Part shown: in pieces, positions 2,572 through 23,515 of the stretch
Position numbering within the stretch: the first letter of the stretch is position 1
Layout of the letters: each line of letters begins with the position of its first letter
From: Micromonospora yangpuensis
GTDB taxonomy: Bacteria > Actinomycetota > Actinomycetes > Mycobacteriales > Micromonosporaceae
Assembly (NCBI RefSeq): GCF_900091615.1
Contig: NZ_FMIA01000002.1
Location: 2,418,001-2,482,000, forward strand
Direction of reading: 5' to 3'
Length of the DNA: 64,000 nt
Position numbers and translations under genes: made by a program
Notes under the pieces: model-generated
What the model saw: the letters and a program-made list of their open reading frames with translations, nothing else
Told to the model about the DNA's origin: nothing
The model's database searches: none

Positions 2572-2641
2572 TGCAAATCCTCACTTCCAGGGGAGAACAG
2601 TGGGGGCACCGCAGGCGGCGACCCGATGAACCTTAACGCGG

Positions 2642-2673
2642 CCACCGCGTCGCCGGCTCCGGCGACGCGGTGG
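2642..2673 (-). terminator. Perfect 14-bp hairpin behind the exporter ATPase gene
   Basis: CCACCGCGTCGCCG (2642-2655) and its exact complement (2660-2673) enclose a 4-base loop GCTC. It starts about 38 bp after the ATPase stop codon at 2711 and precedes the CDP-alditol synthase. No T-run follows, which is usual for G+C-rich actinomycetes. It would end or weaken transcription of the exporter genes before acs1. Confidence 0.72.
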
Positions 2674-2710
2674 GACGACATCGCCCGAACACCGCACGGA
2701 CGACGGAACT

Positions 2711-3529: not shown

Positions 3530-4418
3530 GGCCGTACTCCTGTTCGCCGCGCCAGAAGTAGATGAAGCCACCGATGCCCATCAGCACCGCCCAGCCCACC
3601 GCGACCAACCAGAGCTGGGTCGGCGAGGAGTTGAGCAGGGGCGCCGACTCCAGCAGGGACATCCGGGCCAACTCGATGTAGACAAGCGCCGGGTTCAGCT
3701 CGACCAGCCGGGCCGCCCAGCCGGGCAGGCTCTGCTCGAAGAGGGTGACGCTGTAGAGCACCCCGGAGCCGTACATCCAGGTGCGCAGCACGAAGGGCAT
3801 GACCTGCTTGAGGTCGGCGACCTTCGCCCCGGCGCGGGCCACCGCCATGGTCAGGCCGGCGTTGAAGACCGCCTGCAACAGCACGGTGGGGATCAGCAGC
3901 AGCCACTGCCAGGTCAACGGCTCGCCGGTGACCAGGACGATCCCGGCCAGCACCACCAGCGCGCCCATCAACTGCTGGAACTGGGTGAGCATGGCGGCCA
4001 GCGGCAGGCAGGCCCGGGGGAAGTGCAGGGCCCGGATCAGCCCGAGGTTGCTGGTGATCGACTGGGTGCCGTTCTGCACCGTGGTCTGGGTGAAGTTGAA
4101 GATGAACAACCCGGTGGTCAGGTACGCGATGAAGTTCGGCACCCGGTTCTGTTCGAGCACGATGCCGAAGATCAGGTAGTAGACCGCCGCGTTGGTGAGC
4201 GGGGTGAGCACCTGCCAGAGCTGCCCCAGCTTGGCGTTGCTGAACGAGGACACCAGCTTGGCGTTGGCGTACGCGGTGATGAAGTGCCGGTAGGACCAGA
4301 GCCGGCGGCTGTACACGGCCAGCGGCGGCCGTTCGCCGGCGACCCGCAGCCCGTGCCGGGCGGCCAGTTGCGCCTGGGTCAGGCCGGCGTCTGGGTCGGC
4401 CAGCGCGGTGTTGGCCAT
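3522..4418 (-). CDS. Polysaccharide/teichoic-acid ABC exporter, permease subunit (TagG/Wzm-like, ABC-2 family)
   Basis: 298 residues. A cytoplasmic N-terminus of ~55 residues is followed by about six membrane segments (for example AAVYYLIFGIVLEQ, LVVLAGIVLVTG, WLVAVGWAVLMGIGGFIYFW), typical of ABC-2 exporters of lipid-linked glycans. NAKLGQLWQVLTPL near residue 65 resembles the conserved pre-TM1 motif of TagG/Wzm. It is the first gene of the minus-strand block and is coupled by an 8-bp overlap to the ATPase. The leader carries a 17-bp tandem duplication (4446-4479), and a TetR gene diverges from it, a plausible but unproven regulator. Confidence 0.9.
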   Translation of the reverse strand: MANTALADPDAGLTQAQLAARHGLRVAGERPPLAVYSRRLWSYRHFITAYANAKLVSSFSNAKLGQLWQVLTPLTNAAVYYLIFGIVLEQNRVPNFIAYLTTGLFIFNFTQTTVQNGTQSITSNLGLIRALHFPRACLPLAAMLTQFQQLMGALVVLAGIVLVTGEPLTWQWLLLIPTVLLQAVFNAGLTMAVARAGAKVADLKQVMPFVLRTWMYGSGVLYSVTLFEQSLPGWAARLVELNPALVYIELARMSLLESAPLLNSSPTQLWLVAVGWAVLMGIGGFIYFWRGEQEYGRG

Positions 4419-5305: not shown

Positions 5306-6502
5306 CTAGCGGGCCGGGGCAACTGGCAGCCGGGAGACGATGTGCCGGGCGATCTCCAGCGAGCTGGTCGCCGCGGGCGAGGGCGCGTTGAGCACGTGCA
5401 CCTGCCGCCCGGTCTCGACGATCAGGAAGTCGTCCACCAGCGTGCCGTCCGGGCGGATCGCCTGGGCGCGTACCCCGGCGCCGGCCCGGACGATGTCCGC
5501 CCCGGTCAACTCGGGTACCAGCCGGGCCAGACTCGCCGCGAAGCGCCGACGCGACAGCGACCGGGCCACCTCGGTCAGGCCGTACCGGTAGTGCTTGCGG
5601 CCCAGCGCCCACAACCCCCGGTAGGACACCTCGTCGAGGACGTCACGCGGACTGATCCGTCCCCAGGAGTACCCCTCCCGGGAGGTGGCCAGCACCGCGT
5701 TCGGTCCGGCGTGCACGCTGCCGTCGATCATCTTCGTCAGGTGCACGCCGAGGAACGGGAACTGCGGGTCCGGCACCGGGTAGATCAGCCCCCGGACCAG
5801 CTCCCGCCGACCCGGGGTCAGCTCGTAGTACTCGCCCCGGAACGGCACGATCCGCACCGGGGTGGGCACCCCGGCCAGCCGGGAGATCCGGTCGGCGTGC
5901 AGGCCGGCGCAGTTGATCAGCACGTCGGCGGGCACCTCGCCCCGGGTGGTCTGCACCACCACCCGGTCGCCCCGGTCGACCACCCCGGTCACCTCGGTGC
6001 CGGTGCGCAGGTCCGCCCCGCCGGCGGCGAGCAGCTCGGCGAGCTTGCGGCAGACCGCGCCGAAGTCGACGATGCCGGTCGAGGTCACGTGCAGCGCGGC
6101 GACGGCGGCCACGTGCGGCTCGTACTCCCTCGCCTCGGCCGCGTCGATCAGGCGGACCGGCAGGCCGTTGGCCAGCGCCCGCTGGTGCAGCGCGTGCAGG
6201 CGGGGCAGCTCGGCCTCGGCGGTGGCCACGATCAACTTGCCGCAGATGTCGTACGACAGGTCGTGCGCGGCGCAGAACTCCACCATCGAGGCGCTGCCCG
6301 CCCGGCACAGGGTGGCCTTCAGGCTGCCCGGCGGGTAGTAGACCCCGGCGTGGATCACCCCGGAGTTGTGCCCGGTCTGGTGGGCGGCCCAGCCGGGCTC
6401 CTTCTCCAGCACGGTGACCTGGTCGCCGGGCCGGTCGGTGAGCAGCCGGTGCGCCACGGCGAGGCCGACGATCCCGCCGCCGACGACCACGTACCTCGTC
6501 AT
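5306..6502 (-). CDS. lhgO: FAD-dependent L-2-hydroxyglutarate oxidase family protein (LhgO-like)
   Basis: 398 residues. The dinucleotide-binding motif VVVGGGIVGLAVAHRLL is at the N-terminus, followed by GHNSGVIHAGVYYPPGSLK, a hallmark of the LhgO/YgaF branch of the DAO superfamily, and the later PVPDPQFPFLGVHLT. The family oxidises L-2-hydroxyglutarate to 2-oxoglutarate, a metabolite-repair role. ATG at 6502 has AGGGGG eight bases upstream; a GTG directly before it is equally possible. No functional link with the flanking glycan genes is apparent. Confidence 0.88.
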   Translation of the reverse strand: MTRYVVVGGGIVGLAVAHRLLTDRPGDQVTVLEKEPGWAAHQTGHNSGVIHAGVYYPPGSLKATLCRAGSASMVEFCAAHDLSYDICGKLIVATAEAELPRLHALHQRALANGLPVRLIDAAEAREYEPHVAAVAALHVTSTGIVDFGAVCRKLAELLAAGGADLRTGTEVTGVVDRGDRVVVQTTRGEVPADVLINCAGLHADRISRLAGVPTPVRIVPFRGEYYELTPGRRELVRGLIYPVPDPQFPFLGVHLTKMIDGSVHAGPNAVLATSREGYSWGRISPRDVLDEVSYRGLWALGRKHYRYGLTEVARSLSRRRFAASLARLVPELTGADIVRAGAGVRAQAIRPDGTLVDDFLIVETGRQVHVLNAPSPAATSSLEIARHIVSRLPVAPAR

Positions 6503-7802: not shown

Positions 7803-8735
7803 ATGTCGAAGCAGACCGTCTTCATCACCGGCGGCGCGGGCTTCATCGGCCTGCACGTGGTGCCGATGCTGTTGGAGAAGGGCTACCGGGTCCGGATCTT
7901 CGACAACATGTTCCGCGGCGACCGGGACAAGGTCGCCGAGCTGGTGGCCACCGGTGACGTGGAGCTGATCGACCAGGACGTCCGCTACGGCGGCGCGGTG
8001 CACGCGGCGATGAAGGGCTGCGAGTACGTGATCCACCTCGCCGCGGTGTCGATCAACAAGAGCCAGGCCGACCCGTACGAGTCGGTCGACATCAACATCG
8101 TCGGCAACCACAACGTCTTCGCCGCCGCCGCCGACCACGGCGTCAAGCGGGTGGTCTACGCCTCGTCCGCCTCGGTCTACGGCGACCCGCAGAAGCTGCC
8201 GATGCACGAGGACGACCGGCTCGACCCGCTCACCCCGTACTGCATCGCCAAGCGGGCCGGCGAGGACCTGCTCGGCTTCTACCAGCGCAGCAAGGGGCTG
8301 AACTGGATCGCGCTGCGGTTCTTCAACGTCTACGGCCCCGGCCAGAAGCCGACCGCCTACTACACCTCGGTGATCAACCACTTCGTCAAGCGGTTGAAGA
8401 CCGGCCAGCCGCCGGTGATCGACGGCAAGGGCGAGCAGTCGATGGACTTCATCCACGTGCACGACATCGCCCGCTCGGTGGTGGCCGCGCTGGAGGCCGA
8501 GCAGGGCAACGTGCCGGTCAACATCGGCACCGGGTTGGACACCTCGGTCGCCAGCCTCGCCGAGATCCTGATCAAGGCGGTCGGGGTGGACGTCGAGCCG
8601 CAGTTCAACCCGCGTGAGGTGCTGGTCAGCCGGCGGGCGGCGGACATCACCCGGGCCCGCGAGGTGCTCGGCTGGGAGCCGACCATCGCCGTCGAGGACG
8701 GCATGACCGACCTGATCAAGACCGAGGTCGTGTGA
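7803..8735 (+). CDS. NAD-dependent sugar epimerase/dehydratase (extended SDR)
   Basis: 310 residues from ATG 7803. It has [14 protein letters not shown] (NAD binding), the catalytic region [11 protein letters not shown], then [13 protein letters not shown] with the Tyr-x3-Lys pair, and [12 protein letters not shown]. This places it in the GalE/RmlB/ArnA-type extended SDR family acting on a nucleotide sugar. AGGAAGGA lies upstream at a slightly long distance. It ends in a GTGA overlap with the acetyltransferase, so the two are translationally coupled. 4-Epimerase and 4,6-dehydratase activity cannot be told apart here. Confidence 0.9.
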
Positions 8736-9193
8736 CCCGGGAATCCACCGTCGGCGGTCCGCCAACCGGCGGGCTGCCGGCGAACCCGTACAATCCCCTG
8801 GCCTGGATCATCGGGGAGCCGGTGATCGGCGCCGGGACGTGGATCGGCGCGTTCACCGTCATCGACGGCTCCGGTGGGCTCACCATCGGCGCCGGCTGTG
8901 ACATCAGTTGCGGCGCGCAGATCTACACCCACTCCACGGCCCGGCGGTGTGTCTCCGGCCGGGCGTACCCCTCGGTCGACCGGGCGCCGGTGTCGATCGG
9001 CGACCGCGTCTTCATCGGCGCGAACGCCACCGTGATGATGGGCGTCACCGTGGGTGACGGTGCGGTCGTCGGCGCCGGGGCCGTGGTCACCCGGGACGTG
9101 CCGGCGGGCGCGGTCGTGGCCGGGGTGCCGGCCCGGGTCGTCTCCACCGTCGAGACCGACGGCGGCGACGTCCGGTTCGTACCCGTGTCGTAG
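8732..9193 (+). CDS. Left-handed beta-helix (hexapeptide repeat) acyltransferase
   Basis: 153 residues of imperfect hexapeptides ([47 protein letters not shown]) followed by [27 protein letters not shown], the typical end of the coil. Family members acetylate sugars, often the amine made by a DegT aminotransferase. The GTG start overlaps the epimerase stop codon by four bases. Likely product is the N-acetylated form of the amino sugar made by 6637-7776 and 7803-8735; inference from context. Confidence 0.88.
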
Positions 9194-10548: not shown

Positions 10549-10788
10549 ATGACCCGCACCGACCGGCTGCGTGCCGTCTTCGTCGACGCCCTCGAACTGC
10601 CGGAGGGCACCGACGTCGAGAACCTCAAGTACCGCGACATCGAGCAGTGGGACTCCCTCGGGCACATGACCCTGGTCGCCGCGATCGAGGACGAGTTCGG
10701 TGTCCAGTTGGAGACCGACCAGGTCATCGACCTGAGCAGCTTCAAGGTCGCGCTGGACCTGCTGCGGGGTCTCGGCGTCGATGAGTGA
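10549..10788 (+). CDS. Acyl carrier protein
   Basis: 79 residues from ATG 10549 (GGAGAAG upstream). The phosphopantetheine site is IEQWDSLGHM with the attachment serine at residue 36, followed by the acidic helix IEDEFGVQLETDQV. It carries an acyl or amino-acid-like group as a thioester. It is the first gene of a five-gene block whose members overlap by 8, 4, 4 and 4 bases, so its partner enzymes are probably the FabG-like reductase, ligase, LuxE and LuxC behind it rather than general fatty acid synthesis. Confidence 0.93.
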   Translation: MTRTDRLRAVFVDALELPEGTDVENLKYRDIEQWDSLGHMTLVAAIEDEFGVQLETDQVIDLSSFKVALDLLRGLGVDE

Positions 10789-11536
10789 GCTGGCCGGCCG
10801 GGTCGCGTTGGTGACCGGCGGCACCCGGGGGATCGGGCTGGCCACCGCCCGGGCGTTGGCCGAGGCGGGCGCGACGGTGGTGCTCACCGGCCGCGACGCC
10901 GCCCGCGCCGAGGCGGTCGCCAAGGAGTTCGGCGGCCACGGTCTCGGCCTCGACGTCGGCGACTTCGACGCCGTCGGCGCGGTGGTCCGGCAGGTCACCG
11001 CCGACCACGGTGGCCTGGACGTGCTGGTCGCCAACGCCGGGATCATGGAGAACGGGCTGCTCGGCATGCTGCGCGCCGACGCGGTCCGGCGCACCCTGGA
11101 GGTCAACGTCGCCGGTACGGTCGCCGCCGTCCAGGCCGCCGGCCGCGCGATGGCCCGAAAACGGCAGGCGGCCGACGGTACGCCCCGCCGGGGCGGTGCC
11201 ATCGTGGTGCTGGCCTCGGTGGTCGGCACCCACGGCGCGGCCGGCCAGTCGGTCTACGCCGCGTCCAAGGCGGCCCTGGTCGCGTTGGCCCGCTCGGCGG
11301 CCAAGGAGCTGGGACCCCGGGGCATCCGGGTCAACGCGGTGGCCCCCGGCGTGATCCGTACCGACCTCACCGCGTCCCTGCCGGCCGAGGTGCTCGACGG
11401 GCAGGCCGCCGCCGCGGCGCTGGGCCGGCTGGGCGAGCCCGCCGAGGTCGCCGAGGTGATCCGCTTCCTGGTCGGCGACGGGGCCCGGTACGTCACCGGC
11501 CAGGTGCTCGGGGTCGACGGCGGGCTGGTGCCATGA
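10781..11536 (+). CDS. FabG-like short-chain dehydrogenase/reductase
   Basis: 251 residues, classical SDR: TGGTRGIGLA (residues 11-20, NADP binding), NAGIMENG, catalytic SVYAASKAALVALARSAAKE (Tyr and Lys near 157-161) and a C-terminal YVTGQVLGVDGG like FabG. It would reduce a 3-oxoacyl-ACP to the 3-hydroxy form. Its ATG lies inside the last codons of the ACP gene (8-bp overlap), which strongly suggests that ACP-bound substrate is what it sees. It overlaps the ligase gene by ATGA. Confidence 0.92.
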   Translation: MSELAGRVALVTGGTRGIGLATARALAEAGATVVLTGRDAARAEAVAKEFGGHGLGLDVGDFDAVGAVVRQVTADHGGLDVLVANAGIMENGLLGMLRADAVRRTLEVNVAGTVAAVQAAGRAMARKRQAADGTPRRGGAIVVLASVVGTHGAAGQSVYAASKAALVALARSAAKELGPRGIRVNAVAPGVIRTDLTASLPAEVLDGQAAAAALGRLGEPAEVAEVIRFLVGDGARYVTGQVLGVDGGLVP

Positions 11537-12954
11537 GGCTGGTCGCCGCGTCGGCCCGGCTGATCGACGCCGCCTCCGGCGCCACCCTCGGCGGCGACGA
11601 GCTGGCCGACCGGTTGGCCGGGGTGGCCGCCGCCTACGCCGCGTTGCCGCCCGGGGTGGTCTTCGCCCGCAGCGGCCTCACCGTCGACTCGGTGCTGCGC
11701 TACGCCGGCGCGGTCGACGCCGCCCGCCCGGTCGCCCTGCTCGACCCGGCGCTGGACCCGGCCGTGTTTGCCGACTTCGTCGTCCGCTTCGAGCCGGTCG
11801 CGGTGGTCGGGCTGGCCGAGGGGGGCGCCGGTGCCGGGACCGGGGAGCGCCCCAAGGGGTACCGGGAGGTCACCGACGCGGTGCTCGGCCCGATCTGGGT
11901 ACGCGAGAGCGCCCCGGTCACCGGCTGCCATCCCGATCTCGCCGTCCTGCTGGCCACCTCCGGCTCGACCGGGGACCCGAAGTTCGTCCGGCTCTCCCGG
12001 ACCGCCGTGCTGGCCAACGCCGCCGCCATCGGCACGGCGCTCGACCTGGGCCCGGACGAGATCGCACCGACCAACCTGCCGCTGTACTACAGCTTCGGCC
12101 TGTCGGTGCTCAACAGTCACCTGGCCGCCGGCGCGGCCGTGCTGGTGGTCGACGGCGGGGTGCTGGCCCGGGAGTTCTGGCAGGCCGTGGCGACGCACGG
12201 GGCGACCTCGCTGGCCGGGGTGCCCTACCACTACGAGATGCTGCACCGGATCCGGTGGAGTCCGGTGACGTACCCGTCGGTGCGGACCCTGACCCAGGCC
12301 GGCGGCCGGCTGCGCGACGAGCTGGTCCTGGCCTTCCACGAGCGGATCACCGCCACCGGCGGGCGGTTCCACGTGATGTGGGGCTGCACCGAGGCGGCAC
12401 CCCGGATGAGCACCCTGCCGGCCGACGCGCTGCCCGCCCGGGTCGGCTCGGTCGGCCCCGCCCTGGCCGGCGGCTCGTTCACCGTGCGCACCGCCGACGG
12501 CACCGAGACGACCACTCCCGGCGTGGACGGCGAGCTGGTCTACCGTGGACCGAACGTCATGCTGGGCTACGCCGAACACGCCGCCGACCTGGCTCGGGGC
12601 GACGAGAACGGCGGGGTGCTGCGCACCGGTGACCTCGGGCACCTCGACGCCGACGGCTTCGTCTGGCTGCGGGGCCGGCTGGCCCGGTTCGGCAAGGTCT
12701 TCGGCGTCCGGGTCAACCTGCACGACATCGAGGAGCTGGTCGCCGACCGCGGGCCGCTGGTCGCGGTCTCCGGCCCGGACCGGGTGGTGCTCTTCGTCGA
12801 GGGCATCGACGCCGACGGGGCCCGGAGCATCGCCGGACGGCTGGCCGAGCGGCTGCGGACGCACCGCAGCGGGTTCGACGTCCGTGCCGTCGACCACCTG
12901 CCCCAGCTGCCCAACGGCAAGATCGACTATCGAGCGCTGGAGGCGCGGGTATGA
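11533..12954 (+). CDS. AMP-forming acyl ligase (ANL superfamily)
   Basis: 473 residues. The P-loop LLATSGSTGDPKFV is near residue 138, MWGCTEAAPRMS in the middle, then GELVYRGPNVMLGYAEH, RTGDLGHLDADGF and the C-terminal LPNGKIDYRALE with the adenylating lysine near residue 461. It activates a carboxylic acid as an acyl-adenylate and passes it to a thiol, here most likely the ACP encoded two genes upstream. It is shorter than typical acyl-CoA synthetases (~500-550), lacking part of the N-terminal region. ATGA overlaps at both ends place it firmly in the operon. Confidence 0.88.
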   Translation: MRLVAASARLIDAASGATLGGDELADRLAGVAAAYAALPPGVVFARSGLTVDSVLRYAGAVDAARPVALLDPALDPAVFADFVVRFEPVAVVGLAEGGAGAGTGERPKGYREVTDAVLGPIWVRESAPVTGCHPDLAVLLATSGSTGDPKFVRLSRTAVLANAAAIGTALDLGPDEIAPTNLPLYYSFGLSVLNSHLAAGAAVLVVDGGVLAREFWQAVATHGATSLAGVPYHYEMLHRIRWSPVTYPSVRTLTQAGGRLRDELVLAFHERITATGGRFHVMWGCTEAAPRMSTLPADALPARVGSVGPALAGGSFTVRTADGTETTTPGVDGELVYRGPNVMLGYAEHAADLARGDENGGVLRTGDLGHLDADGFVWLRGRLARFGKVFGVRVNLHDIEELVADRGPLVAVSGPDRVVLFVEGIDADGARSIAGRLAERLRTHRSGFDVRAVDHLPQLPNGKIDYRALEARV

Positions 12955-13997
12955 CGCTGTTCACCCTGCCGCAGGCCGACCGGGAGGCGCGGCTGCTCCC
13001 GGAGCTGGTCGAGCTCACCGAGCACCACCGCGCCCACAGCCCGGAGTACGCCCGGCTGCTGGCCGCCCTGGGACACCCGCCGGGCCGACGCTACGACCGG
13101 GTCGCCGACCTACCCTGGCTGCCGGTCCGGCTGTTCAAGCACCACCTGCTCAAGAGCATTCCCGACGACGAGGTGTTCAAGGTGCTCACCTCCTCGGGCA
13201 CCAGTGGCGAGGTCAGCCGGATCCACCTCGACAAGGACGCCGCGTCGGTGCAGCAGCGGATGCTCAGCGCCACCATGCGGACCGTGATCGGGGCGCAGCG
13301 ACTGCCGATGCTGCTGGTCGACACCCGGGCGCTCTTCGCCAACCGGCGCTCCTTCTCCGCCCGGGGCGCGGGAGTGCTGGGCATGATGAACTTCGGCCGT
13401 CAGCACACCTTCGTCCTCGACGAGCAGGACCAGCCGGACCTGGCCGCGGTCCGGGCCTTCCTCGACAGGCACGGCGACCAACCGTTCCTGATCTTCGGTT
13501 TCACCTTCATGACCTGGCTCTACCTCTACGAACTGGCCAAGGAACACCGGCTCGACCTGAGCAACGGCATCCTGATCCACAGTGGTGGCTGGAAGAAGCT
13601 GGCCGACCGGGCGGTCGACAACGCCGAGTTCCGCCGTCGGTTCACCGCCGACACCGGGCTGAGCCGGATCCACAACTTCTACGGCATGGTCGAGCAGATC
13701 GGGTTGACCTTCCTGGAGGGCCCGGACGGCGGCGGACTCTACTGCCCGGACTTCTCCGACGTCATCGTCCGGGACCCGCAGACCTGGCAGGAGGTGCCGG
13801 TCGGCACCCCCGGCGTGGTGCAGGTGATCAGCACCCTGCCCCGGTCGTACCCGGGTCACCTGCTGCTCACCGAGGACCGGGCGGTGGTGCACGGCGTCGA
13901 CGACGGGGTGTGGCCGGGCAAGCGGTTCGAGATCCTGGGCCGGCTGCCGCGCGCCGAGGCCCGCGGTTGCAGCGACACCTTCGCGGCGGCGGCATGA
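12951..13997 (+). CDS. luxE: Acyl-protein synthetase, LuxE family
   Basis: 348 residues, close to the 370 of luminous-bacteria LuxE. The adenylate-forming signature appears as KVLTSSGTSGEVSRIHLD near residue 80 and HNFYGMVEQIGLTFLEG in the middle. The end reads EARGCSDTFAA; Cys340 corresponds to the near-C-terminal cysteine that carries the acyl group in LuxE. Known role: takes an acyl group, holds it as a thioester and hands it to LuxC for reduction. Next gene is LuxC with a 4-bp overlap. No luciferase (LuxAB) and no LuxD thioesterase occur in the window. Confidence 0.92.
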   Translation: MTLFTLPQADREARLLPELVELTEHHRAHSPEYARLLAALGHPPGRRYDRVADLPWLPVRLFKHHLLKSIPDDEVFKVLTSSGTSGEVSRIHLDKDAASVQQRMLSATMRTVIGAQRLPMLLVDTRALFANRRSFSARGAGVLGMMNFGRQHTFVLDEQDQPDLAAVRAFLDRHGDQPFLIFGFTFMTWLYLYELAKEHRLDLSNGILIHSGGWKKLADRAVDNAEFRRRFTADTGLSRIHNFYGMVEQIGLTFLEGPDGGGLYCPDFSDVIVRDPQTWQEVPVGTPGVVQVISTLPRSYPGHLLLTEDRAVVHGVDDGVWPGKRFEILGRLPRAEARGCSDTFAAAA

Positions 13998-15268
13998 GCA
14001 CGGTGACCGGCGGCAGCCGGGAGGCCGTGGTCGAGCCGGCGGTGACCGGACGATTCCCGGCCGGCGGCCGGACCACCGTCGCCGACCTGCTGACCGGGCT
14101 ACGGGCGACGCCTGTCGACGGGCCGCTGACCGTCGGCGACGAGCGGGTGGTCGAGTTCCTGGTGGCCTTCGCCCGCCGGCTGCTGCGGCCGGCGGTGGCC
14201 CGCCGGCACCCGGAACTGGCCTCCCTCGGCTTCTTCCTGCGCCGGGGCGAGATCGGCCGGGCGCTCACCGCCGTCGGCGACGAGCCCGGTCGACTGCGGT
14301 TCCCGCGCGGACTGGTCTTCCACGTGCCGCCGGCCAACGTCGACACCATCTTCGTCTACTCGTGGGCGCTGGCGGCGCTGGCCGGCAACGCCAACGTGGT
14401 ACGGATCTCCTCCCGGTCGGCCGGCGCGGCAGACGCCGTCCTGGACGCGCTGAACGACACCCTGACCGAGGCGCACCCGGCGCTGCGGCAGACCCAGCGG
14501 ATGGTGACCTACGGGCGGGACGACGCCGTGACCGCCGCCCTGTCGGCCGCCGCGGACCTGCGGGTGATCTGGGGTGGCGACCGCTCGGTCACCGAGATCC
14601 GCCGGCACCCGCTCGCCCCGCACGCCCGGGACGTCACCTTCCCGGACCGGTCGTCGTTCAGCGTGATCAGCGTCGCCGGCTGGCTGGCCGCCACCGAGGC
14701 CGACCGCGACGGCGCGGCGTTGGGCCTGTACAACGACGCGTACTGGTTCGACCAGGCCGCCTGTGCCTCGCCCCGGGCGGTCTACTGGGTAGGCGACCCG
14801 GCCGACAGCGACACCGCCCGGGCCGACCTGCTCACCCGGCTGCGCAGGGTGCTGGACGCCCGACGCCCGGAGATCGACGCCGCGATGGCGGTGGAGAAAC
14901 GGGTGGCCACCTACGGGTTGGCGATCACCGGCGCCGCGACCGGTGTCCGGTTCCACGGCAACGACCTGGCCACGGTGGAGCTCGCCGACCCCGGTGACCT
15001 GCCGCGCCGCTGGCTCGGCGTCGGCACCTTCCCGCAGGCCCGGGTCGACGCGCTGGCCGACCTCGCCCCGGTGGTGGTCCGGCGGGACCAGACCGTCACC
15101 CACTTCGGCTTCGACGCGGCGGAGTTGACCGCCTTCGCCCGTACCGTCGCCGGCCGGGGGATCGACCGGCTGGTGCCCATCGGTGCCGCGTTGACCTTCG
15201 CCGCGACCTGGGACGGCTACGACCTGATGCGGGAGTTCACCAGGCTCACCACGCTCACCACCGGCTGA
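13994..15268 (+). CDS. luxC: Acyl-CoA/acyl-protein reductase, LuxC family
   Basis: 424 residues from ATG 13994, overlapping the luxE stop codon by four bases. It is an aldehyde-dehydrogenase-like NADPH enzyme: FHVPPANVDTIFVYSWA, GGDRSVTEIRRHPLAP and the catalytic region WFDQAACASPRAVYWVG with the expected nucleophile at about Cys257. It reduces an acyl thioester on LuxE to an aldehyde. Last gene of the operon; the next gene is convergent. Without luciferase the aldehyde, or an alcohol or amine made from it, must serve another use, perhaps decoration of a surface glycan or lipid (inference). Confidence 0.92.
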   Translation: MSTVTGGSREAVVEPAVTGRFPAGGRTTVADLLTGLRATPVDGPLTVGDERVVEFLVAFARRLLRPAVARRHPELASLGFFLRRGEIGRALTAVGDEPGRLRFPRGLVFHVPPANVDTIFVYSWALAALAGNANVVRISSRSAGAADAVLDALNDTLTEAHPALRQTQRMVTYGRDDAVTAALSAAADLRVIWGGDRSVTEIRRHPLAPHARDVTFPDRSSFSVISVAGWLAATEADRDGAALGLYNDAYWFDQAACASPRAVYWVGDPADSDTARADLLTRLRRVLDARRPEIDAAMAVEKRVATYGLAITGAATGVRFHGNDLATVELADPGDLPRRWLGVGTFPQARVDALADLAPVVVRRDQTVTHFGFDAAELTAFARTVAGRGIDRLVPIGAALTFAATWDGYDLMREFTRLTTLTTG

Positions 15269-15328: not shown

Positions 15329-16393
15329 TCAGGCGTTCGTGGTCGGCGAGGTGGCGACCACGTCGGGCGTGCTGCCGCGCAGTTGCCGCAGCCCGGAGAG
15401 GGCGGCGATGCCGGCGGCGAGCACGTCGGCGATGGTGAAGATCAGCCGGGAGGCCAGGGCGATGCCCATCGCCGCGCCCACCCCGCCGTGGTCGAGCAGG
15501 AACGGGGCCAGGGCGGCGACCAGCACCGCTTCCCGGACGCCGAGCCCGGAGGGGGAGAGGAAGGCGAACATGCCGACCGTCATCGCGATCGCGAACGCGC
15601 CCACCGACCGCAGCAGCCCCTCGAAGCCCGGCGCGGCCTGCGCGTTGGCCAGCAGCCAGAGGTGCACCCCGAACAGGCTGTAGCCCAGCGCGCTCCAGCC
15701 GATCACCCGGAGCACCCCCGGCCAGGTCAACCGGTGGGTCAGCGGTGGCCGGCGGAGCAGTCGCAGGGCGAGCTGCACCAGCGCGGTCAGCACCCGGGGC
15801 ACCGCACAGAGCAGGGCGATCGGGAAGAGCACCGCCACGATCCAGAGCGCCACCCGCACCGAGTCGGCGTACGTCGAGTCGGAGCCGACCGCCTCCCGCA
15901 GCGACGGCAGCCCCACCACGCCGAGGCCGAGCGCGGCGGTCACCCCGAGCCCGAGCGCGATCAGCGAGGCCAGGAACGCCCGGGGCCGGGGCAGCCCGGC
16001 GCGTCGGCTCAGCTCGATCTGCAACACGTACGCCCAGACGCTGCCCGGGATGTACTTGCCGAGCTGACCCACCAGGCAGATCCGCAGGGCCGCGCCGACG
16101 GAGACCCGGTGCTCCAGATCGGCCACCGCGGCCCGCCAGGCCATCGTGTTGGCCACCATGCCGAGCAGCGCGGCGAGCACCGACAGCGTCACCGACGACC
16201 AGGCCAGGCCGAGCCAGGTGGCCCGGACCTGGGGCCACTGGTCGACGACGCTCCAGGTCATCCCCGCCACGATGGCGACGATCACCACCACCCGTACGGC
16301 CACGTTGAGCCAGCGCCGCCGCCCACCGGCCGCCGCGGACGGATCCGTCTCCGGTGCCTCGTCGACCGTACGGCGGGCTGCGGTTTCTACCAC
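15329..16393 (-). CDS. UPF0104/lysylphosphatidylglycerol-synthase-TM family membrane protein
   Basis: 354 residues with about eight membrane segments. LVGQLGKYIPGSVWAYVLQ near residue 125 matches the family hallmark (GKYIPG), followed by SRRAGLPRPRAFLAS. Members are related to the flippase domain of MprF and to GlcT-like proteins, and are often found in polysaccharide loci, presumably moving or binding lipid-linked sugars. GTG at 16393 has GGAGG nine bases upstream. It is convergent with luxC and divergent from the WbpE-like aminotransferase. Exact role unknown. Confidence 0.85.
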   Translation of the reverse strand: MVETAARRTVDEAPETDPSAAAGGRRRWLNVAVRVVVIVAIVAGMTWSVVDQWPQVRATWLGLAWSSVTLSVLAALLGMVANTMAWRAAVADLEHRVSVGAALRICLVGQLGKYIPGSVWAYVLQIELSRRAGLPRPRAFLASLIALGLGVTAALGLGVVGLPSLREAVGSDSTYADSVRVALWIVAVLFPIALLCAVPRVLTALVQLALRLLRRPPLTHRLTWPGVLRVIGWSALGYSLFGVHLWLLANAQAAPGFEGLLRSVGAFAIAMTVGMFAFLSPSGLGVREAVLVAALAPFLLDHGGVGAAMGIALASRLIFTIADVLAAGIAALSGLRQLRGSTPDVVATSPTTNA

Positions 16394-16595: not shown

Positions 16596-17696
16596 GTGAT
16601 CCCGATATCCGTCGTCAAGCTCGACGAGGCGGCCGAAGAGCTGGCGGTCGAGGTGATCCGTTCCGGTCGGCTGGCCCAGGGCCCGATGGTGGCCCGGCTG
16701 GAGCAGGAGTTCGCCGCGCTGGTCGGTGCCGAGCACGCGGTGGCGGTCAACAACGGCACGACCGCGTTGGTCGCCGCCCTCGAGGTCTGTGACCTGCGCC
16801 CCGGTGACGAGGTGGTGACCAGCCCCTTCACCTTCGTCGCCACCCTCAACGCGATCCTCGAAGCGGGTGCCACCGCCCGCTTCGCCGACATCCGCGACGA
16901 CGACTTCTGCCTGGACCCCGAGGCGCTCGCCGCCGCCGTCGGCCCGCGTACCCGGGTCGTCCTGCCGGTGCACCTGTACGGCCAGCCGGCCGACATGGCG
17001 GCGATCGTGCCGGTCGTCCAGCGGCACGGGCTCGGCCTGGTCGAGGACACCGCCCAGTCGCTGGGTGCCACCGTCGACGGGCGCGGCGCGGGCAGTTTCG
17101 GTCTCGGCACGTTCTCCCTCTACGCCACCAAGAACCTCACCACGGGTGAGGGTGGGATGATCACCACCAACGACGCGACGCTCGCCGACCGGCTGCGGGT
17201 GCTGCGCAACCAGGGCATGCGCCAGCGCTACCAGTACGAGGTCGCCGGGCACAACTACCGGTTGACCGACCTGCAGGCGGCGCTCGGCATCCCCCAGCTG
17301 GCCGGTTACGGCGCGAACGTCAAGCGGCGCAAGGACAACGCCGCCCAGCTCTCCGCCGGCCTGGCCGACCTGCCCGGCCTGCGGCTGCCGACCGAGCGGC
17401 CGGGTCGCTCCCACGTCTGGCACCAGTACACCGTGCTGGTCACCGCCGACGCCGCGGTCTCCCGGGACGAGCTGGTCGCCAAGCTGACCGAGCAGGGGGT
17501 CGGCTGTGGCGTCTACTACCCCCGGACCGTCTACGACTACGACTGCTACCGGGAACACCCCCGGGTGGTCGCCGACCCGGCGCCGGTGGCCGAGCGGGTG
17601 GCCCGGCAGTGCCTGTCGCTGCCGGTGCACCACCACCTCACCGACGACGAGGTGCAGCGGGTGGTCGAGGCGGTCCGGACGGCGGTGGGCGGGTGA
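16596..17696 (+). CDS. DegT family aminotransferase, WbpE/WlbC-like
   Basis: 366 residues from GTG 16596 (GAGGAGAG six bases upstream). PLP-lysine motif FSLYATKNLTTGEGG and GHNYRLTDLQAALG are canonical. In the Wbp/Wlb pathway this enzyme aminates UDP-3-keto-GlcNAc-uronate. The following gene, coupled by GTGA, is a WbpB-like dehydrogenase, and a WbpD-like N-acetyltransferase is 5.3 kb downstream, so a UDP-2,3-diacetamido-2,3-dideoxyuronic acid is the likely product. The required UDP-GlcNAc 6-dehydrogenase is not in the window. A TAACGT at 16552-16557 may be the -10. Confidence 0.9.
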   Translation: MIPISVVKLDEAAEELAVEVIRSGRLAQGPMVARLEQEFAALVGAEHAVAVNNGTTALVAALEVCDLRPGDEVVTSPFTFVATLNAILEAGATARFADIRDDDFCLDPEALAAAVGPRTRVVLPVHLYGQPADMAAIVPVVQRHGLGLVEDTAQSLGATVDGRGAGSFGLGTFSLYATKNLTTGEGGMITTNDATLADRLRVLRNQGMRQRYQYEVAGHNYRLTDLQAALGIPQLAGYGANVKRRKDNAAQLSAGLADLPGLRLPTERPGRSHVWHQYTVLVTADAAVSRDELVAKLTEQGVGCGVYYPRTVYDYDCYREHPRVVADPAPVAERVARQCLSLPVHHHLTDDEVQRVVEAVRTAVGG

Positions 17697-18664
17697 GCGC
17701 CCCGGTCCGGTTCGCGCTGGTGGGCACGGGCACGATGGGGTCGCTGCACGCCCGGGTGATCTCCCAGTCACTCCGGGCCCGGCTGGTCCGGGTCGTCGAG
17801 CCCCGGGAGGAGACCGGTCGCCAGATCGCCGACCGGTACGGCGCGCAGTGGGCGCCGGAGCTGGGTGACCTGGCCGACGTGGACGCCGTCGTGGTCGCCG
17901 CCCCCACCGAGTACCACCACGGACTGGCCGAGCGGGTCCTCGCCGCCGACAAGCCGCTGCTGATCGAGAAGCCGGTCTGCGGCAGCCTCGCCGAGACCGA
18001 GGAGGTCGTGGCGCAGGCCGAGAAGCGCGGCGTGCCGCTGCTCTGCGGCCTGCTGGAGCGCTTCAACCCGGCGGTGCTGACCGCGCTGGCGTTGGCCCAC
18101 CGGCCGGTGCACCTGAGCGTGGCCCGGCACTCGCCGTACGCGCCCCGGATCCGTACCGGGGTCGCCTGGGACCTGCTCGTGCACGACGTCGACCTGGCGA
18201 TCCAGGTCTTCGGCGGGGCCGCCCCCACGGTGGTCCGGGGGTCGCTCGGCTACTTCCATCCCGACTCGGTGGCCGGTGCCGAGGACGTCGCCGAGGCGGT
18301 GCTGACCTTCGACGGCGGCGCGCTGGCCAACGTCTCCGCCAGTCGGATCGGTCAGCGCAAGGTCCGTACACTGGTGGTCAGCGAGGTGGACCGGCTGATC
18401 GAGGCTGACCTGATCCGCAAGGACGTCACGATCTACCGGCACGTCTCGCTGGACGCGGCCACGCCGGACGGCCGGGGTTACCGGCAGCAGAGCATCATCG
18501 AGGTGCCGGAGCTGGTGTCGAACCGGGAGCCGTTGGCCGCCCAGCTCGACCACTTCCTCGACATCCTCGCCGGACGGCTGGACGCCGACGCCGAACGGCA
18601 ACGGATCCTGCCGGCGCACCGTACGGTCGCCAGCGTGATCGAGGACAACCCGCCGCAGCGCTGA
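17693..18664 (+). CDS. Gfo/Idh/MocA family oxidoreductase, WbpB/WlbA-like
   Basis: 323 residues. Rossmann motif FALVGTGTMGSLHARV, the EKP motif (LLIEKPVCGS) and WDLLVHDVDLAIQVFGG with the conserved His-Asp of the family. WbpB/WlbA oxidise the 3-OH of UDP-GlcNAc-uronate to the 3-keto sugar that the aminotransferase upstream uses. GTG overlaps the aminotransferase stop codon. The pairing with 16596-17696 is the main reason for choosing WbpB among the many activities in the family. Confidence 0.86.
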   Translation: MSAPVRFALVGTGTMGSLHARVISQSLRARLVRVVEPREETGRQIADRYGAQWAPELGDLADVDAVVVAAPTEYHHGLAERVLAADKPLLIEKPVCGSLAETEEVVAQAEKRGVPLLCGLLERFNPAVLTALALAHRPVHLSVARHSPYAPRIRTGVAWDLLVHDVDLAIQVFGGAAPTVVRGSLGYFHPDSVAGAEDVAEAVLTFDGGALANVSASRIGQRKVRTLVVSEVDRLIEADLIRKDVTIYRHVSLDAATPDGRGYRQQSIIEVPELVSNREPLAAQLDHFLDILAGRLDADAERQRILPAHRTVASVIEDNPPQR

Positions 18665-21100: not shown

Positions 21101-22864
21101 TTGTTCGGCACGTTACTCCAGCGACTCGGGGTCCCCGCCCGCGGTGCGCTGCTGCTGCTGTGCTATCTGACCATGCTCGTCGCGGCCGTGTTCGGTGGGA
21201 CCTGGGTCTTCGCCGTCGCCGGGCTGGCCGCGGTCGCCGGTGAGTTCGCCATCGAGCGCTGGTCCGCCCCGGCGCGGGTGTTGCTGGACAAGGTCGGCCT
21301 CGGCCGGCTCTACCGGCAACTCGCCCGGGACCTGGCGGTGGTCCTGCTGGTGGTGACCACGGTGCGCCCGGGTCTGGGGCAGCTCACCGCGGTCCTGCTG
21401 CTGCTGGCGGGGGTCTGGGGGACCGGGGTCTTCGCCGGGGCCTTCTCCCGCATGATCAACCGGCGTAACCCGGTCTCCGCGTTGGTCCGCAACATCGATC
21501 TCGGTCACATCACCGAGGCCCCACGTCCGCCGGCCTGGACCACGGCGCTGATGGGCAGCCAGATGGCCCAGCTGAACATCCTGCTCATCCCGGCCGTGGC
21601 CGTCGCCGCGTACCTCGGTGACGTGCTGCCGGTGCTGGTGGCCGGGGTGCTGGCCGCCGCGGTGGCCGCCGTGGTGGGGCTGCTCGTCGTGGTCACCTGG
21701 CTGCGCGGGCGGGGTCAGGGCACCGGCAAGAGCTCCGTGCTCGCCGCGGTGCAGGGCTGGCTGGACAGCTACCAGCCACAGGTGGCGCTCTACTTCGCCG
21801 GTCCGGCCAAGGACGTCTACCAGGCCAACATGTGGCTGGCCCCGACCGAGGCGCTCGACCAGCGCGGGGTCGTGCTGATGCGCAGCAAGGAGGCCTTCAC
21901 CGAGCTGGCCGACACCCGGCTCCCGGTGATCTGCGTACCGGCCAGTGTGGACTTCATGAACCTCGAACTGGGCAGCGTGCGGGCGGCGATGTACGCGGCC
22001 AACGTGGGCGCGAACATCCACATGCTGCGCGAGCCGGGCATGAAGCACGTCTTCGTCGGCCACGGCGACAGCGACAAGCAGGCGAGCGTCAACCCGTACA
22101 GCAAGGTGTACGACGAGGTGTGGGTCGCCGGTCTGGCCGGACGGGAGCGGTACGCCCGCGCCGGGGTCGGGGTGCTGGACGCCGACATCGTCGAGATCGG
22201 CCGGCCGCAGCTCGCCGGGGTGCACACCTTCGGTGCCCAGTCGGTCGACCGGCCGTTCACCGTGCTGTACGCGCCGACCTGGGAGGGGTGGCTGGACGAC
22301 GACCCCTACCACACCTCGGTGGTGCTGATGGGTGAGCGGATCGTGAAGAGCCTGCTGAAGGCGCAGCCGGGCGTCCGGTTGATCTACAAGCCGCACCCGC
22401 TGACCGGGGCCCGCTCCAAGGAGGCCAAGGCGGTGCACGAGCGGATCGTGGCCCGCATCGGCGCGGCCGGCGGGGACGTCAACTCGACCAGTCTGGACGG
22501 ACCCGGCCACCGGGTGGTGACCGGTCGGGTGCCGGGGCTGTTCGATTGTTTCAACCAGACCGACCTGATGATCAGCGACATCTCCAGCGTGGTCTCCGAC
22601 TTCGTGCAGAGTCAGCGGCCGTACGTGGTGGCCAACCCGAGCGGGTTGCCGGAGGACGAGTTCCGGCGGCAGTTCCCCACCTCGCGCGGGGCGTACCTGC
22701 TCTCGGTGGACTGCGGCGAGCTGGCGAAGATCCTCACCCTCACCCGGGCCGGCGACGACCCGATGACCGAGGCCCGTCGGGAGCTGAAGACCTACCTGCT
22801 CGGCCCGGACGAGCCGAACTCGATGGAGCGCTTCCGGCAGGAGATCACCCGGCTCTGCTACTGA
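21101..22864 (+). CDS. CDP-glycerol glycerophosphotransferase family protein
   Basis: 587 residues from a TTG start (AGGGAG nine bases upstream). Residues ~1-200 hold roughly six membrane segments; the rest is a GT-B-like domain with VGHGDSDKQASVNP, APTWEGW, YKPHPLTGARS and DLMISDISSVVSDFV, the set seen in TagB/TagF/TarL-type teichoic acid enzymes. It should add poly(alditol-phosphate) or prime a teichoic-acid-like chain. The cut gene at 1-1026 is a paralogue of the same domain order. The N-terminal membrane domain is unusual for TagF, which is peripheral. Ends in front of a strong bidirectional hairpin. Confidence 0.87.
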   Translation: MFGTLLQRLGVPARGALLLLCYLTMLVAAVFGGTWVFAVAGLAAVAGEFAIERWSAPARVLLDKVGLGRLYRQLARDLAVVLLVVTTVRPGLGQLTAVLLLLAGVWGTGVFAGAFSRMINRRNPVSALVRNIDLGHITEAPRPPAWTTALMGSQMAQLNILLIPAVAVAAYLGDVLPVLVAGVLAAAVAAVVGLLVVVTWLRGRGQGTGKSSVLAAVQGWLDSYQPQVALYFAGPAKDVYQANMWLAPTEALDQRGVVLMRSKEAFTELADTRLPVICVPASVDFMNLELGSVRAAMYAANVGANIHMLREPGMKHVFVGHGDSDKQASVNPYSKVYDEVWVAGLAGRERYARAGVGVLDADIVEIGRPQLAGVHTFGAQSVDRPFTVLYAPTWEGWLDDDPYHTSVVLMGERIVKSLLKAQPGVRLIYKPHPLTGARSKEAKAVHERIVARIGAAGGDVNSTSLDGPGHRVVTGRVPGLFDCFNQTDLMISDISSVVSDFVQSQRPYVVANPSGLPEDEFRRQFPTSRGAYLLSVDCGELAKILTLTRAGDDPMTEARRELKTYLLGPDEPNSMERFRQEITRLCY

Positions 22865-22972: not shown

Positions 22973-23515
22973 TCAGCCGCGCCGGGGTGGGGTGTCGACG
23001 TCCCGGGAGACCACCTCGCCGCGCTCGTCCACCCAGCCCTTCGGCCGCGCCGGATTGCCGGCGACCAACTGGTACGGCGCGACGTCGCGGGTCACCACCG
23101 AACCGGCCGCGATCATGGCGTACTCGCCCACCTCGATGCCGCAGACCAGGGTGGCGTTGGCGCCGATCGAGGCGCCCCGACGGACCACCGTCGGGGTGAT
23201 CTTCCAGTCCGGGTTCTGCGCGCGGGGGCGGAAGTCGTTGGTGAAGACCGCGCAGGGGCCGACGAAGACCTCGTCCTCCAGGGTCACCCCCTGGTAGACG
23301 GAGACATTGTTCTGGATCTTGACGAGGTCGCCGACGCGCACCCCGGCGTCGACGTACACGTTGCGGCCGATCACGCAGCCGGCACCGATCCGGGCGGTGG
23401 ACCGGACGTGGGCCAGGTGCCAGACCTTGCTGCCCTCGCCGACCTGGGCGCCGGCTTCGACGTCGGCGCTGGGGTGCACGAAGACCGCGGGCGGCCGGGA
23501 TTCAGTGTCAGTCAC
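22973..23515 (-). CDS. Hexapeptide-repeat N-acetyltransferase, WbpD/WlbB-like
   Basis: 180 residues from GTG 23515. It starts with FVHPSADVEAGAQVGEGSKVW and contains NNVSVYQGVTLEDEVFVGPC, FTNDFRPRAQ and GSVVTRDVAPYQLVAGNPAR, the pattern of WbpD/WlbB, which acetylate the 3-amino group of UDP-GlcNAc3N-uronate. It completes the WbpB-WbpE set at 16.6-18.7 kb, though it is in a separate, convergent unit. Substrate assignment is by likeness and context. Confidence 0.88.
   Translation of the reverse strand: MTDTESRPPAVFVHPSADVEAGAQVGEGSKVWHLAHVRSTARIGAGCVIGRNVYVDAGVRVGDLVKIQNNVSVYQGVTLEDEVFVGPCAVFTNDFRPRAQNPDWKITPTVVRRGASIGANATLVCGIEVGEYAMIAAGSVVTRDVAPYQLVAGNPARPKGWVDERGEVVSRDVDTPPRRG

What the first reader, a model, noticed from the sequence alone, without database searches (positions are those of the whole stretch)
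10549..15268. LuxE-LuxC acyl-reductase operon with its own ACP, ketoreductase and ligase, but no luciferase, inside a glycan locus
Seen: five genes overlap by 8, 4, 4 and 4 bases, so the set is kept as one unit; all key residues are present (ACP Ser36, LuxE Cys340, LuxC Cys257, ligase P-loop and lysine). Known: LuxE and LuxC turn an acyl group into an aldehyde for luminous bacteria, where LuxD supplies the acid. Here a ligase and ACP would supply it and the FabG-like reductase can set a 3-hydroxy group. Inferred: the pathway makes an aldehyde (or alcohol/amine after a later step) used to decorate a surface glycan or lipid. This is the best candidate for an undescribed system in the window.
Basis: partly seen in the sequence, partly recalled or inferred. 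Interest (0 to 1): 0.82.

Follow-up and report, generated by a model that had tools for sequence, protein, structure and literature searches.

The report
Enzyme set making short sugar caps
Five linked genes that resemble part of the light-producing machinery of luminous bacteria most likely make a small hydroxy-acid group that is attached to amino sugars on the cell surface, and the idea also fits two unexplained masses reported for a bacterial flagellum glycan.

Summary
The operon is real: ACP, SDR, AMP-ligase, LuxE and LuxC at 10549-15268, overlapping by 8/4/4/4 bases, catalytic residues conserved. It is not undescribed as a gene set: the same order is published for Aeromonas flagellin glycosylation islands, read there as fatty-acid or "liposugar" synthesis. 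Of 121 actinobacterial loci, 115 carry an amino-sugar or N-acyltransferase marker within about 10 kb: Gfo/Idh + DegT aminotransferase and/or an LpxA-like acyltransferase (69), pseudaminic acid genes (40), GNAT/WecE (6). The window's own genome has a pseudaminic acid gene set just 5' of the window. A LuxE-domain protein belongs to the cholera O-antigen genes for tetronate. Best model: LuxE activates a short dicarboxylic acid, LuxC and the SDR reduce it to a hydroxy acid, the ligase loads it on the ACP, and a transferase N-acylates an amino sugar. Dihydroxybutyryl predicts 102.03 and 376.15 Da, matching two unexplained masses of the Aeromonas AH-3 glycan. Nothing was tested biochemically.

The parts
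10549..10788 (+). dedicated acyl carrier protein (Ser36 carries the arm)
   Evidence: PF00550 25.9 bits; Ser36 conserved; no PDB match at E<=1e-3
10781..11536 (+). SDR reductase, FabG-like; proposed to reduce the semialdehyde to the alcohol
   Evidence: adh_short_C2 201 bits; best NCBIfam 3-oxoacyl-ACP reductase 215.7 bits, below cut-off 297.75; role inferred
11533..12954 (+). AMP-forming ligase, 473 aa; proposed acid:ACP ligase
   Evidence: PF00501 121.6 bits; best PDB matches NRPS-type, oxalate and malonate ligases; best NCBIfam models, all below cut-off, include acyl-ACP/long-chain types; role inferred
12951..13997 (+). LuxE-like acyl-protein synthetase (Cys340)
   Evidence: PF04443 155 bits; 7xc6_E; 57.8 bits against luminous LuxE cut-off 550
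13994..15268 (+). LuxC-like acyl thioester reductase (Cys257)
   Evidence: PF05893 94 bits; 7xc6_A; single match in the genome
16596..17696 (+). DegT sugar aminotransferase, proposed partner for the acceptor amino sugar (GnnB-like by context only)
   Evidence: PF01041 399 bits (scanned from 16560); best NCBIfam PseC 295 bits, below cut-off 423.5; same family near the cassette in many loci
17693..18664 (+). Gfo/Idh/MocA dehydrogenase, UDP-GlcNAc 3-dehydrogenase-like (GnnA-like)
   Evidence: NCBIfam UDP-GlcNAc 3-dehydrogenase E=2.9e-36, 125.6 bits, below cut-off 450; PDB 7bvj 1.5e-25
22973..23479 (-). hexapeptide transferase, candidate N-acyltransferase in the window's genome (NeuD/WlbB-like)
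   Evidence: NeuD family 93 bits, below cut-off 160.8; present in all five of the seven Micromonospora loci that show no LpxA-like gene, and also in L006 which shows one
8732..9193 (+). second hexapeptide transferase, alternative candidate; a relative lies directly 5' of the ACP in several Micromonospora loci
15329..16393 (-). multi-spanning membrane protein (LPG_synthase_TM family), family near the cassette in 60 of 81 loci
   Evidence: PF03706 55.9 bits
9213..10400 (+). GT4-type glycosyltransferase
   Evidence: scanned from 9054
5306..6502 (-). L-2-hydroxyglutarate oxidase (LhgO), family near the cassette in 20 of 81 loci; possible hint to the acid used
   Evidence: NCBIfam 570 bits, cut-off 299

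Best explanation
A dedicated pathway that makes a short hydroxy-acyl-ACP and hands the acyl group to the amino group of a cell-surface amino sugar. Proposed order: (1) LuxE adenylates one carboxyl of a C4-C5 (hydroxy)dicarboxylic acid, such as malate, and takes it on Cys340; (2) LuxC takes the acyl on Cys257 and reduces it with NADPH to the semialdehyde; (3) the SDR reduces the aldehyde to the alcohol, giving for malate 2,4-dihydroxybutyrate (3-deoxy-tetronate); (4) the AMP-ligase activates the remaining carboxyl and loads it on the ACP; (5) a hexapeptide or GNAT transferase moves it to an amino sugar. The acceptor differs by lineage: a Gfo/Idh + DegT (GnnAB-like) 3-amino sugar in the window's lineage, pseudaminic acid in others and perhaps also here. 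Shown: genes, residues, order, conservation, contexts, the Pse gene set beside the window. Inferred: every chemical step and its order. I give about 0.68 to 'short hydroxy-acyl donor for amino-sugar N-acylation' and about 0.45 to dihydroxybutyryl specifically.
For: Context: of 121 loci (81 chosen by me from the hits), 52 have Gfo+DegT and LpxA-like, 8 Gfo+DegT, 9 LpxA-like, 40 at least two Pse genes, 6 GNAT and/or WecE (3 of them only a GNAT), 6 none. The LpxA-like gene is directly 5' of the ACP in 56 of 81 loci; LpxA uses acyl-ACP (family knowledge); active-site His125 is kept in 60 of 60 and the acyl-length ruler Gly173 is Met or Leu in 60 of 60 (meaning of 173 recalled), as expected for a shorter acyl. 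LpxA-like occurs in 6 of 250 family genomes, all 6 LuxE-positive. PseI: 69 of 85 LuxE-positive genomes against 37 of 165 negative; 65 of the 69 pairs within 30 kb. In genus g203 the unit is split yet stays in one Pse island: ligase about 20 kb from LuxE in 5 of 5 genomes, and in the one looked at (G378) ACP-SDR-ligase together beside PseB. Own genome: genes matching PseG, F, C, B, I, H at -14.7 to -6.4 kb from the window start (PseI 440 bits over cut-off 340.25). Published: a LuxE domain is in V. cholerae RfbN of the tetronate genes; its ligase WbeL has 471 aa, ours 473. Mass: dihydroxybutyryl 102.032, and Pse with one acetyl swapped for it 376.148, against 102 and 376.14 Da reported for a strain that bears the set; of 16 acyls tried only this one fits. 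LuxE R138, R150, H210 and LuxC D196 are fixed in 118 of 118 actinobacterial rows (LuxC R203, K302 in 117) and in 3 of 3 Deinococcus, Ponticoccus and Rhizobium rows, and absent from the 4 LuxE and 3 LuxC rows of other context.
Against: No enzyme of the set was assayed. Aeromonas and V. cholerae sequences were not compared, so those links rest on published annotation. The SDR is closest to FabG; the ligase's best NCBIfam models include acyl-ACP--phospholipid and long-chain types, and a fatty-acyl-CoA synthase is seventh among its PDB matches. The window's genome has no LpxA-like gene, so its transferase and acceptor are guesses. 6 of 121 loci show no marker (one, L154, has a NeuD-type transferase beside LuxC, not counted); 16 of 85 LuxE-positive family genomes lack PseI. 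No marker rate was measured at random loci; the own genome has 5 strong DegT genes in 6.5 Mb. Contexts follow the tree (3 changes on 118 tips; shuffles 29 or more): a few old events, not 115 independent ones. LhgO in 20 of 81 loci would allow a C5 acid. In AH-3 the 102 Da unit is placed at the far end of the chain, not on Pse, so the model needs the same acid in two places. Masses are good to about 0.1 Da; the printed m/z 1092.1 (3+) gives 1492.4, not the stated 1491.5.
Confidence: 0.68

Rival explanations
1. One reading: ligase and ACP load a fatty or 3-keto acid, the FabG-like SDR sets a 3-hydroxy group, LuxE-LuxC reduce it, and the aldehyde (or derived alcohol or amine) decorates a glycan or lipid.
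For: SDR best NCBIfam match is 3-oxoacyl-ACP reductase; ligase matches include long-chain types; LuxE/LuxC of luminous bacteria act on fatty acids (family knowledge).
Against: No ketosynthase in the five-gene unit; aminotransferases and N-acyltransferases in most contexts; the set-bearing Aeromonas strain's reported glycan leaves no room for a long acyl.
Confidence: 0.13
2. Published reading: the genes make a fatty acyl 'liposugar' component of the glycan.
For: Stated for Aeromonas and Enterobacteriaceae.
Against: AH-3, which carries the set, has a summed glycan without a fatty acyl mass; LuxE/LuxC are far below the luminous equivalog cut-offs; LpxA-like ruler residue bulky in 60 of 60.
Confidence: 0.07
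3. Same pathway logic but a C5 product: 2-hydroxyglutarate is reduced to 2,5-dihydroxypentanoate in the window's lineage, with the nearby LhgO acting on the pool of L-2-hydroxyglutarate. (A sub-case of the best explanation, not exclusive of it.)
For: LhgO at 5306-6502 (570 bits) and its family in 20 of 81 loci at different relative places.
Against: LhgO's family is not seen in 61 of the 81 loci; may be a chance neighbour; the Aeromonas mass fits C4.
Confidence: 0.2
4. A natural-product or signalling aldehyde unrelated to the glycan.
For: LuxE-LuxC pairs outside this cassette occur beside RiPP-like or transport genes on plasmids.
Against: 115 of 121 cassette loci have amino-sugar or N-acyltransferase markers; no called protein of 900 aa or more in the 121 loci.
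Confidence: 0.05

Closest known systems
Aeromonas group II polar flagellin glycosylation island, orf1-orf2-orf3-luxE-luxC (PMC7874193, passages read)
   Same: Same order of the same five functions, in an island with pseudaminic acid genes; same families in Enterobacteriaceae islands (PMC4875605, passages and section 9 read)
   Different: Gram-negative, acceptor is flagellin; the window's genome has no flagellin match. Function unproven there; authors propose a liposugar. Protein sequences not compared here
Vibrio cholerae O1 tetronate genes VC0248-VC0252 (wbe/rfb; PMC3441752 and PMC4772473, passages read)
   Same: LuxE-domain protein (RfbN) and a 471-aa protein WbeL with a putative ATP-binding domain, beside perosamine genes; product an N-linked 3-deoxy-L-glycero-tetronyl group
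   Different: The alcohol-forming step is, as I recall, an iron alcohol dehydrogenase rather than an SDR; acceptor perosamine; sequences not compared here
LuxC-LuxE fatty acid reductase of luminous bacteria (PDB 7xc6)
   Same: Same families, catalytic Cys residues, paired genes
   Different: No luciferase unit, extra ligase/ACP/SDR, below equivalog cut-offs (57.8 vs 550 and 47.3 vs 750 bits)
GnnA/GnnB/LpxA route to 3-N-acyl GlcNAc3N (recalled, Acidithiobacillus, Leptospira)
   Same: Gfo/Idh dehydrogenase + DegT aminotransferase + LpxA-like acyl-ACP transferase in 52 of 121 cassette loci
   Different: Here in Gram-positive bacteria; LpxA-like below the LpxA cut-off (182 vs 226 bits), bulky ruler residue; LpxA-like gene absent from the window's genome

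Membership tests
Luminous LuxCDE fatty acid reductase | meets NCBIfam LuxE and LuxC equivalog cut-offs | tested here: not met
   57.8 vs 550 bits; 47.3 vs 750 bits
Luminous LuxCDE fatty acid reductase | linked luciferase genes | tested here: not met
   luciferase-like monooxygenase in 32 of 81 loci but tied to a HAD gene in 31 of 32; no relative of it in 40 Micromonosporaceae loci nor in the window plus 20 kb
Luminous LuxCDE fatty acid reductase | catalytic Cys of LuxE and LuxC | tested here: met
   C340 and C257 conserved
Luminous LuxCDE fatty acid reductase | LuxD acyl-ACP thioesterase present | not tested
   not among the five genes; genome not searched for it
Aeromonas-type five-gene glycan cassette | order ACP, SDR, AMP-synthetase, LuxE, LuxC | tested here: met
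   window, and each gene in its place in 77 or more of 81 loci; Aeromonas order from text
Aeromonas-type five-gene glycan cassette | pseudaminic acid genes in the same island | tested here: met
   own genome 17-25 kb away; 65 of 69 LuxE+PseI genomes within 30 kb
Aeromonas-type five-gene glycan cassette | flagellin as acceptor | tested here: not met
   no PF00669 match in the window's genome
Aeromonas-type five-gene glycan cassette | orthology of the proteins | not tested
V. cholerae O1 tetronate pathway | LuxE-domain protein and acid ligase beside amino sugar genes | tested here: met
   (text)
V. cholerae O1 tetronate pathway | orthology of the proteins | not tested
V. cholerae O1 tetronate pathway | product is 3-deoxy-tetronyl amide | not testable with these tools
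   mass arithmetic for Aeromonas only
GnnA/GnnB/LpxA route | acyl-ACP hexapeptide transferase with catalytic His | tested here: inconclusive
   met in 60 relatives (His125 60 of 60), but the window's genome has none
GnnA/GnnB/LpxA route | UDP-GlcNAc 3-dehydrogenase | tested here: inconclusive
   best NCBIfam match, 125.6 bits below cut-off 450

The most novel reading that the evidence does not exclude
A portable acyl-donor module, shared by Actinomycetota, Deinococcota and Pseudomonadota, turns a central-metabolism dicarboxylic acid into dihydroxybutyryl-ACP and is plugged into different amino-sugar pathways (GlcNAc3N, pseudaminic acid, probably Fuc4N) through unrelated transferases, including an LpxA re-used for short acyls in bacteria without lipid A; it explains the 102 and 376 Da unknowns of Aeromonas flagellin and overturns the 'fatty acid/liposugar' annotation of lux-like genes in glycan islands.
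Probability: 0.42. Interest if true: 0.78.

Novelty: new variant of a known kind. Interest (0 to 1): 0.62.

Why it matters
Non-luminous LuxE/LuxC genes in glycan islands are annotated as fatty-acid genes. A concrete alternative with predicted masses (102.03 Da acyl, 376.148 Da sugar, +102.03 on ACP) makes two unexplained masses and the role of these genes directly testable, and it predicts a short-acyl branch of LpxA in Gram-positive bacteria.

Tried and rejected
Long-chain aldehyde or liposugar: rejected as leading reading because of the mass sum of the AH-3 glycan and the contexts. Natural-product cluster: no called protein of 900 aa or more in the 121 loci, so no modular NRPS/PKS within reach; smaller natural-product enzymes were not screened. 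Flagellin as acceptor here: no match in the genome. LpxA-like transferase in the window's genome: searched, not there; the only weak match was the window's own 22973-23479 hexapeptide. Shewanella 274 Da flagellin sugar as a second mass test: a search of that paper for the cassette terms gave nothing, so it does not bear on the model (PMC3765264, passages). PMC9290775 and PMC7371886 were searched for terms and held nothing on the cassette. Paper searches (open-licence PMC library only, listings) showed no printed link between LuxE/LuxC and dihydroxybutyryl other than the RfbN sentence; the 2012 JBC paper was not held and the 1995 Gene paper was not sought. Recalled, from no call: that 7bvj is GnnA (one search found no paper on it), that 3wv4/3wvn is an amino-acid:ACP ligase, the LpxA residue-173 ruler, the iron dehydrogenase of V. 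cholerae, that tetronate is 2,4-dihydroxybutyrate. 'PseF' is my label: the protein matches cytidylyltransferase models of KdsB type only. Structure prediction was not used.

Dropped or limited rows: 236 LuxC relatives were confirmed but the best 80 kept; 3 of 81 loci under 12 kb left out; the 40 further loci are my choice from the 86 LuxE places, weighted to genus g226; L168 repeats L076; the tree used 118 of 121 (left out L156, L160, L168). The context tree is a FastTree with midpoint root and one weak branch (0.55).


Full report
1. What is there. Five + strand genes lie head to tail at 10549-15268 with overlaps of 8, 4, 4 and 4 bases: ACP (79 aa), SDR (251), AMP-ligase (473), LuxE-like (348), LuxC-like (424). 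Pfam assigns all five above cut-off. The only solved structure found for LuxE and for LuxC at E<=1e-3 is 7xc6. NCBIfam's luminous LuxE and LuxC models match far below their cut-offs. Ser36, Cys340, Cys257, Lys463 and Tyr159 are conserved. The genome has a single LuxC match.

2. The unit is conserved. A scan of genome contigs with LuxC gave 236 confirmed relatives, of which the best 80 were kept (Micromonospora, Catellatospora, Longispora, Dactylosporangium, Amycolatopsis, Lentzea, Kibdelosporangium, Saccharothrix, Nonomuraea and others). With the window, 81 loci: LuxE and ligase in 81 of 81 at fixed places, SDR at -3 in 78, ACP at -4 in 77. In a sample of the phylum the LuxE is rare, 2 of 296 genomes, one of them the window's own; in a sample of the window's family it is common, 85 of 250.

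3. Its company. In the 78 loci of at least 12 kb a DegT aminotransferase is found in 70, a Gfo/Idh dehydrogenase in 61, a hexapeptide transferase in 67 and a GNAT in 4; 64 have both an aminotransferase and a transferase. The gene directly 5' of the ACP in 56 of 81 loci is LpxA-like: LpxA model E=1.2e-53 but 182 bits against a cut-off of 226, PDB LpxA 1.9e-35. Against E. coli K-12 LpxA, His125, His160 and Asn198 are kept in 60 of 60, Gly173 is Met in 52 and Leu in 8, Gly155 is Met or Leu in 60, His191 is Pro in 60. The meaning of position 173 as chain-length ruler is recalled. In 250 family genomes the LpxA-like gene occurs in 6, all with LuxE; in five the two lie within 6 kb, in one (G356) about 3 Mb apart.

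4. A second company. In Nonomuraea, Hamadaea and a large genus of the window's family (g226) the cassette stands beside pseudaminic acid genes: PseB 494 bits over cut-off 407.75, PseI 461 bits over 340.25, PseH 85.6 under 93.1, PseC 416-418 under 423.5, PseG 120 under 153.55. Over 250 family genomes PseI occurs in 69 of 85 with LuxE and 37 of 165 without; 65 of the 69 pairs lie within 30 kb, median 13.5 kb; Fisher p=1.8e-19, not corrected for kinship (50 of the 69 are of genus g226). A Dactylosporangium locus (L072) instead has a WecE-type aminotransferase (516 bits over cut-off 375) with a GNAT. A Deinococcus plasmid carries the five genes between polysaccharide genes and a NeuD-type acetyltransferase (185.5 bits over 160.8). 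A Rhizobium plasmid has a variant with a NeuD-like transferase (153.5, under 160.8) and a transketolase pair. A Ponticoccus plasmid has LuxC detached.

5. All contexts. Of 121 loci, 69 are Gnn/LpxA type, 40 Pse, 6 GNAT/WecE, 6 without a marker: L062, L075, L079, L153, L154, L167. L075 and L079 are short contigs; L154 has a NeuD-type gene beside LuxC that this count leaves out. On a tree of LuxE+LuxC (118 tips) context changes at least 3 times, shuffles never below 29: the contexts are old, so the counts are not independent. In genus g203 the ligase lies about 20 kb from LuxE in 5 of 5 genomes, on the far side of a Pse island; in the one genome read (G378) ACP, SDR and ligase stand together beside PseB.

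6. The window's own genome. DegT and Gfo genes follow the cassette (16596-18664); the Gfo is closest to UDP-GlcNAc 3-dehydrogenase, below cut-off. Just before the window start lie genes matching PseG, PseF, two unknowns, PseC, PseB, PseI and PseH on the minus strand, window-relative -14727 to -6364 (PseI 440 bits over cut-off, PseG 139 under 153.55). Four of the five strong DegT genes of the genome lie within 77 kb around the cassette. There is no flagellin match. Nearby ribitol-phosphate cytidylyltransferase-like (173.5 bits over 166), TagH-like (179 under 320) and PF04464 genes suggest a teichoic-acid-like wall polymer. Which of the two amino sugars is acylated is open. The Gnn-type pair is my first choice because the window's cassette falls in a clade of 12 Gnn-type loci, and 33 of the 40 PseI-positive genomes of the window's genus lack LuxE at the limit.

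7. Published ground. PMC7874193 (passages): Aeromonas group II islands hold ACP, 3-oxoacyl-ACP reductase, AMP synthetase, luxE and luxC, in AH-3 downstream of pseH, read as fatty-acid genes; strain AH-3 has a 376.14 Da pseudaminic acid derivative and an unknown 102 Da moiety. PMC4284686 (passages): the lateral flagellin carries the 376 Da sugar alone. PMC3958885 (passages): A. caviae Sch3N is listed with Pse5Ac7Ac, and the 102 Da unit of AH-3 at the end of the chain. PMC4875605 (passages and section 9): same families in Enterobacteriaceae islands. PMC3441752 (passages) and PMC6434791 (passage): V. cholerae O1 perosamine and tetronate genes; VC0248-VC0252 assigned to tetronate; WbeL is 471 aa. 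PMC4772473 (passages): a LuxE domain is in RfbN of that set.

8. Mechanism. Turning one carboxyl of a dicarboxylic acid into an alcohol and the other into an amide needs two acid activations, two reductions, a carrier and a transferase. The cassette has LuxE and ligase, LuxC and SDR, ACP, and a neighbouring transferase. The best ligase structures are NRPS-type, oxalate and malonate ligases, with a fatty-acyl-CoA synthase seventh; against this, the best NCBIfam models, all below cut-off, are an exosortase-associated acyl-CoA ligase and acyl-ACP--phospholipid and long-chain types, with a 2-oxoglutaryl-ACP ligase lower. Charged or polar residues in LuxE (R138, R150, H210, Q249) and LuxC (D196, R203, K302, D391) are shared by actinobacterial, Deinococcus, Ponticoccus and Rhizobium cassette proteins but not by the three LuxC and four LuxE rows of other context. 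The order of steps is inference.

9. Mass. Dihydroxybutyryl is C4H6O3, 102.032; Pse5Ac7Ac residue 316.127 with one acetyl swapped is 376.148; 16 acyls were tried, 32 masses, and only this one gives 376.1. The remainder of the stated 1491.5 Da glycan is 102.05. The printed m/z values give 1492.4 and 376.09, so the fit is good to about 0.1 Da for the sugar and looser for the total. 2,3-, 2,4- and 3,4-isomers are not told apart. The masses come from one strain, and I saw no report of a deletion of the set there.

10. Verdict.

Noticed in passing
window 5306-6502 (-): L-2-hydroxyglutarate oxidase (570 bits over cut-off 299); its family is near the cassette in 20 of 81 loci at different relative places.
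   Followed up: partly
window 1069-4418 and 21101-22864: Ribitol-phosphate cytidylyltransferase-like protein fused to an SDR, TagH-like exporter pair and a PF04464 glycerophosphotransferase-like protein: looks like a teichoic-acid-type polymer island.
   Followed up: partly
window 60882-62977: FnlA-like dehydratase/epimerase (387 bits, below cut-off 730) and WbcJ-like reductase (184, below 500): a further amino-sugar pathway.
   Followed up: no
L169 (20 kb before the window): Pse genes with two conserved unknown proteins (280 and 609 aa) between PseF and PseC; their families occur in 30 and 25 of 35 Pse loci and the relatives scanned had no Pfam match; possibly the transferases.
   Followed up: partly
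L087 7857-10435; L086 7911-12788: LuxE-LuxC beside DUF692, YcaO-like and MBL genes on a Streptomyces plasmid, and a LuxE-like protein with AMP-binding proteins near a peptidase-domain ABC exporter on a Salmonella plasmid: other uses of the family, perhaps peptide modification.
   Followed up: no
L088 7962-13798; L089 7917-11298: LuxE-LuxC with a 3-oxoacyl-ACP reductase but no annotated ACP or further ligase in the stretch on Priestia and Pantoea plasmids: a different non-luminous LuxE-LuxC type.
   Followed up: no
L052 19117-19998 and 31 other loci: Luciferase-like monooxygenase next to a HAD hydrolase in 31 of 32 loci; seems chromosomal background, not part of the cassette.
   Followed up: partly
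L152, L153 (genome G303): One genome holds two diverged copies of the cassette, the second with rearranged gene order.
   Followed up: no
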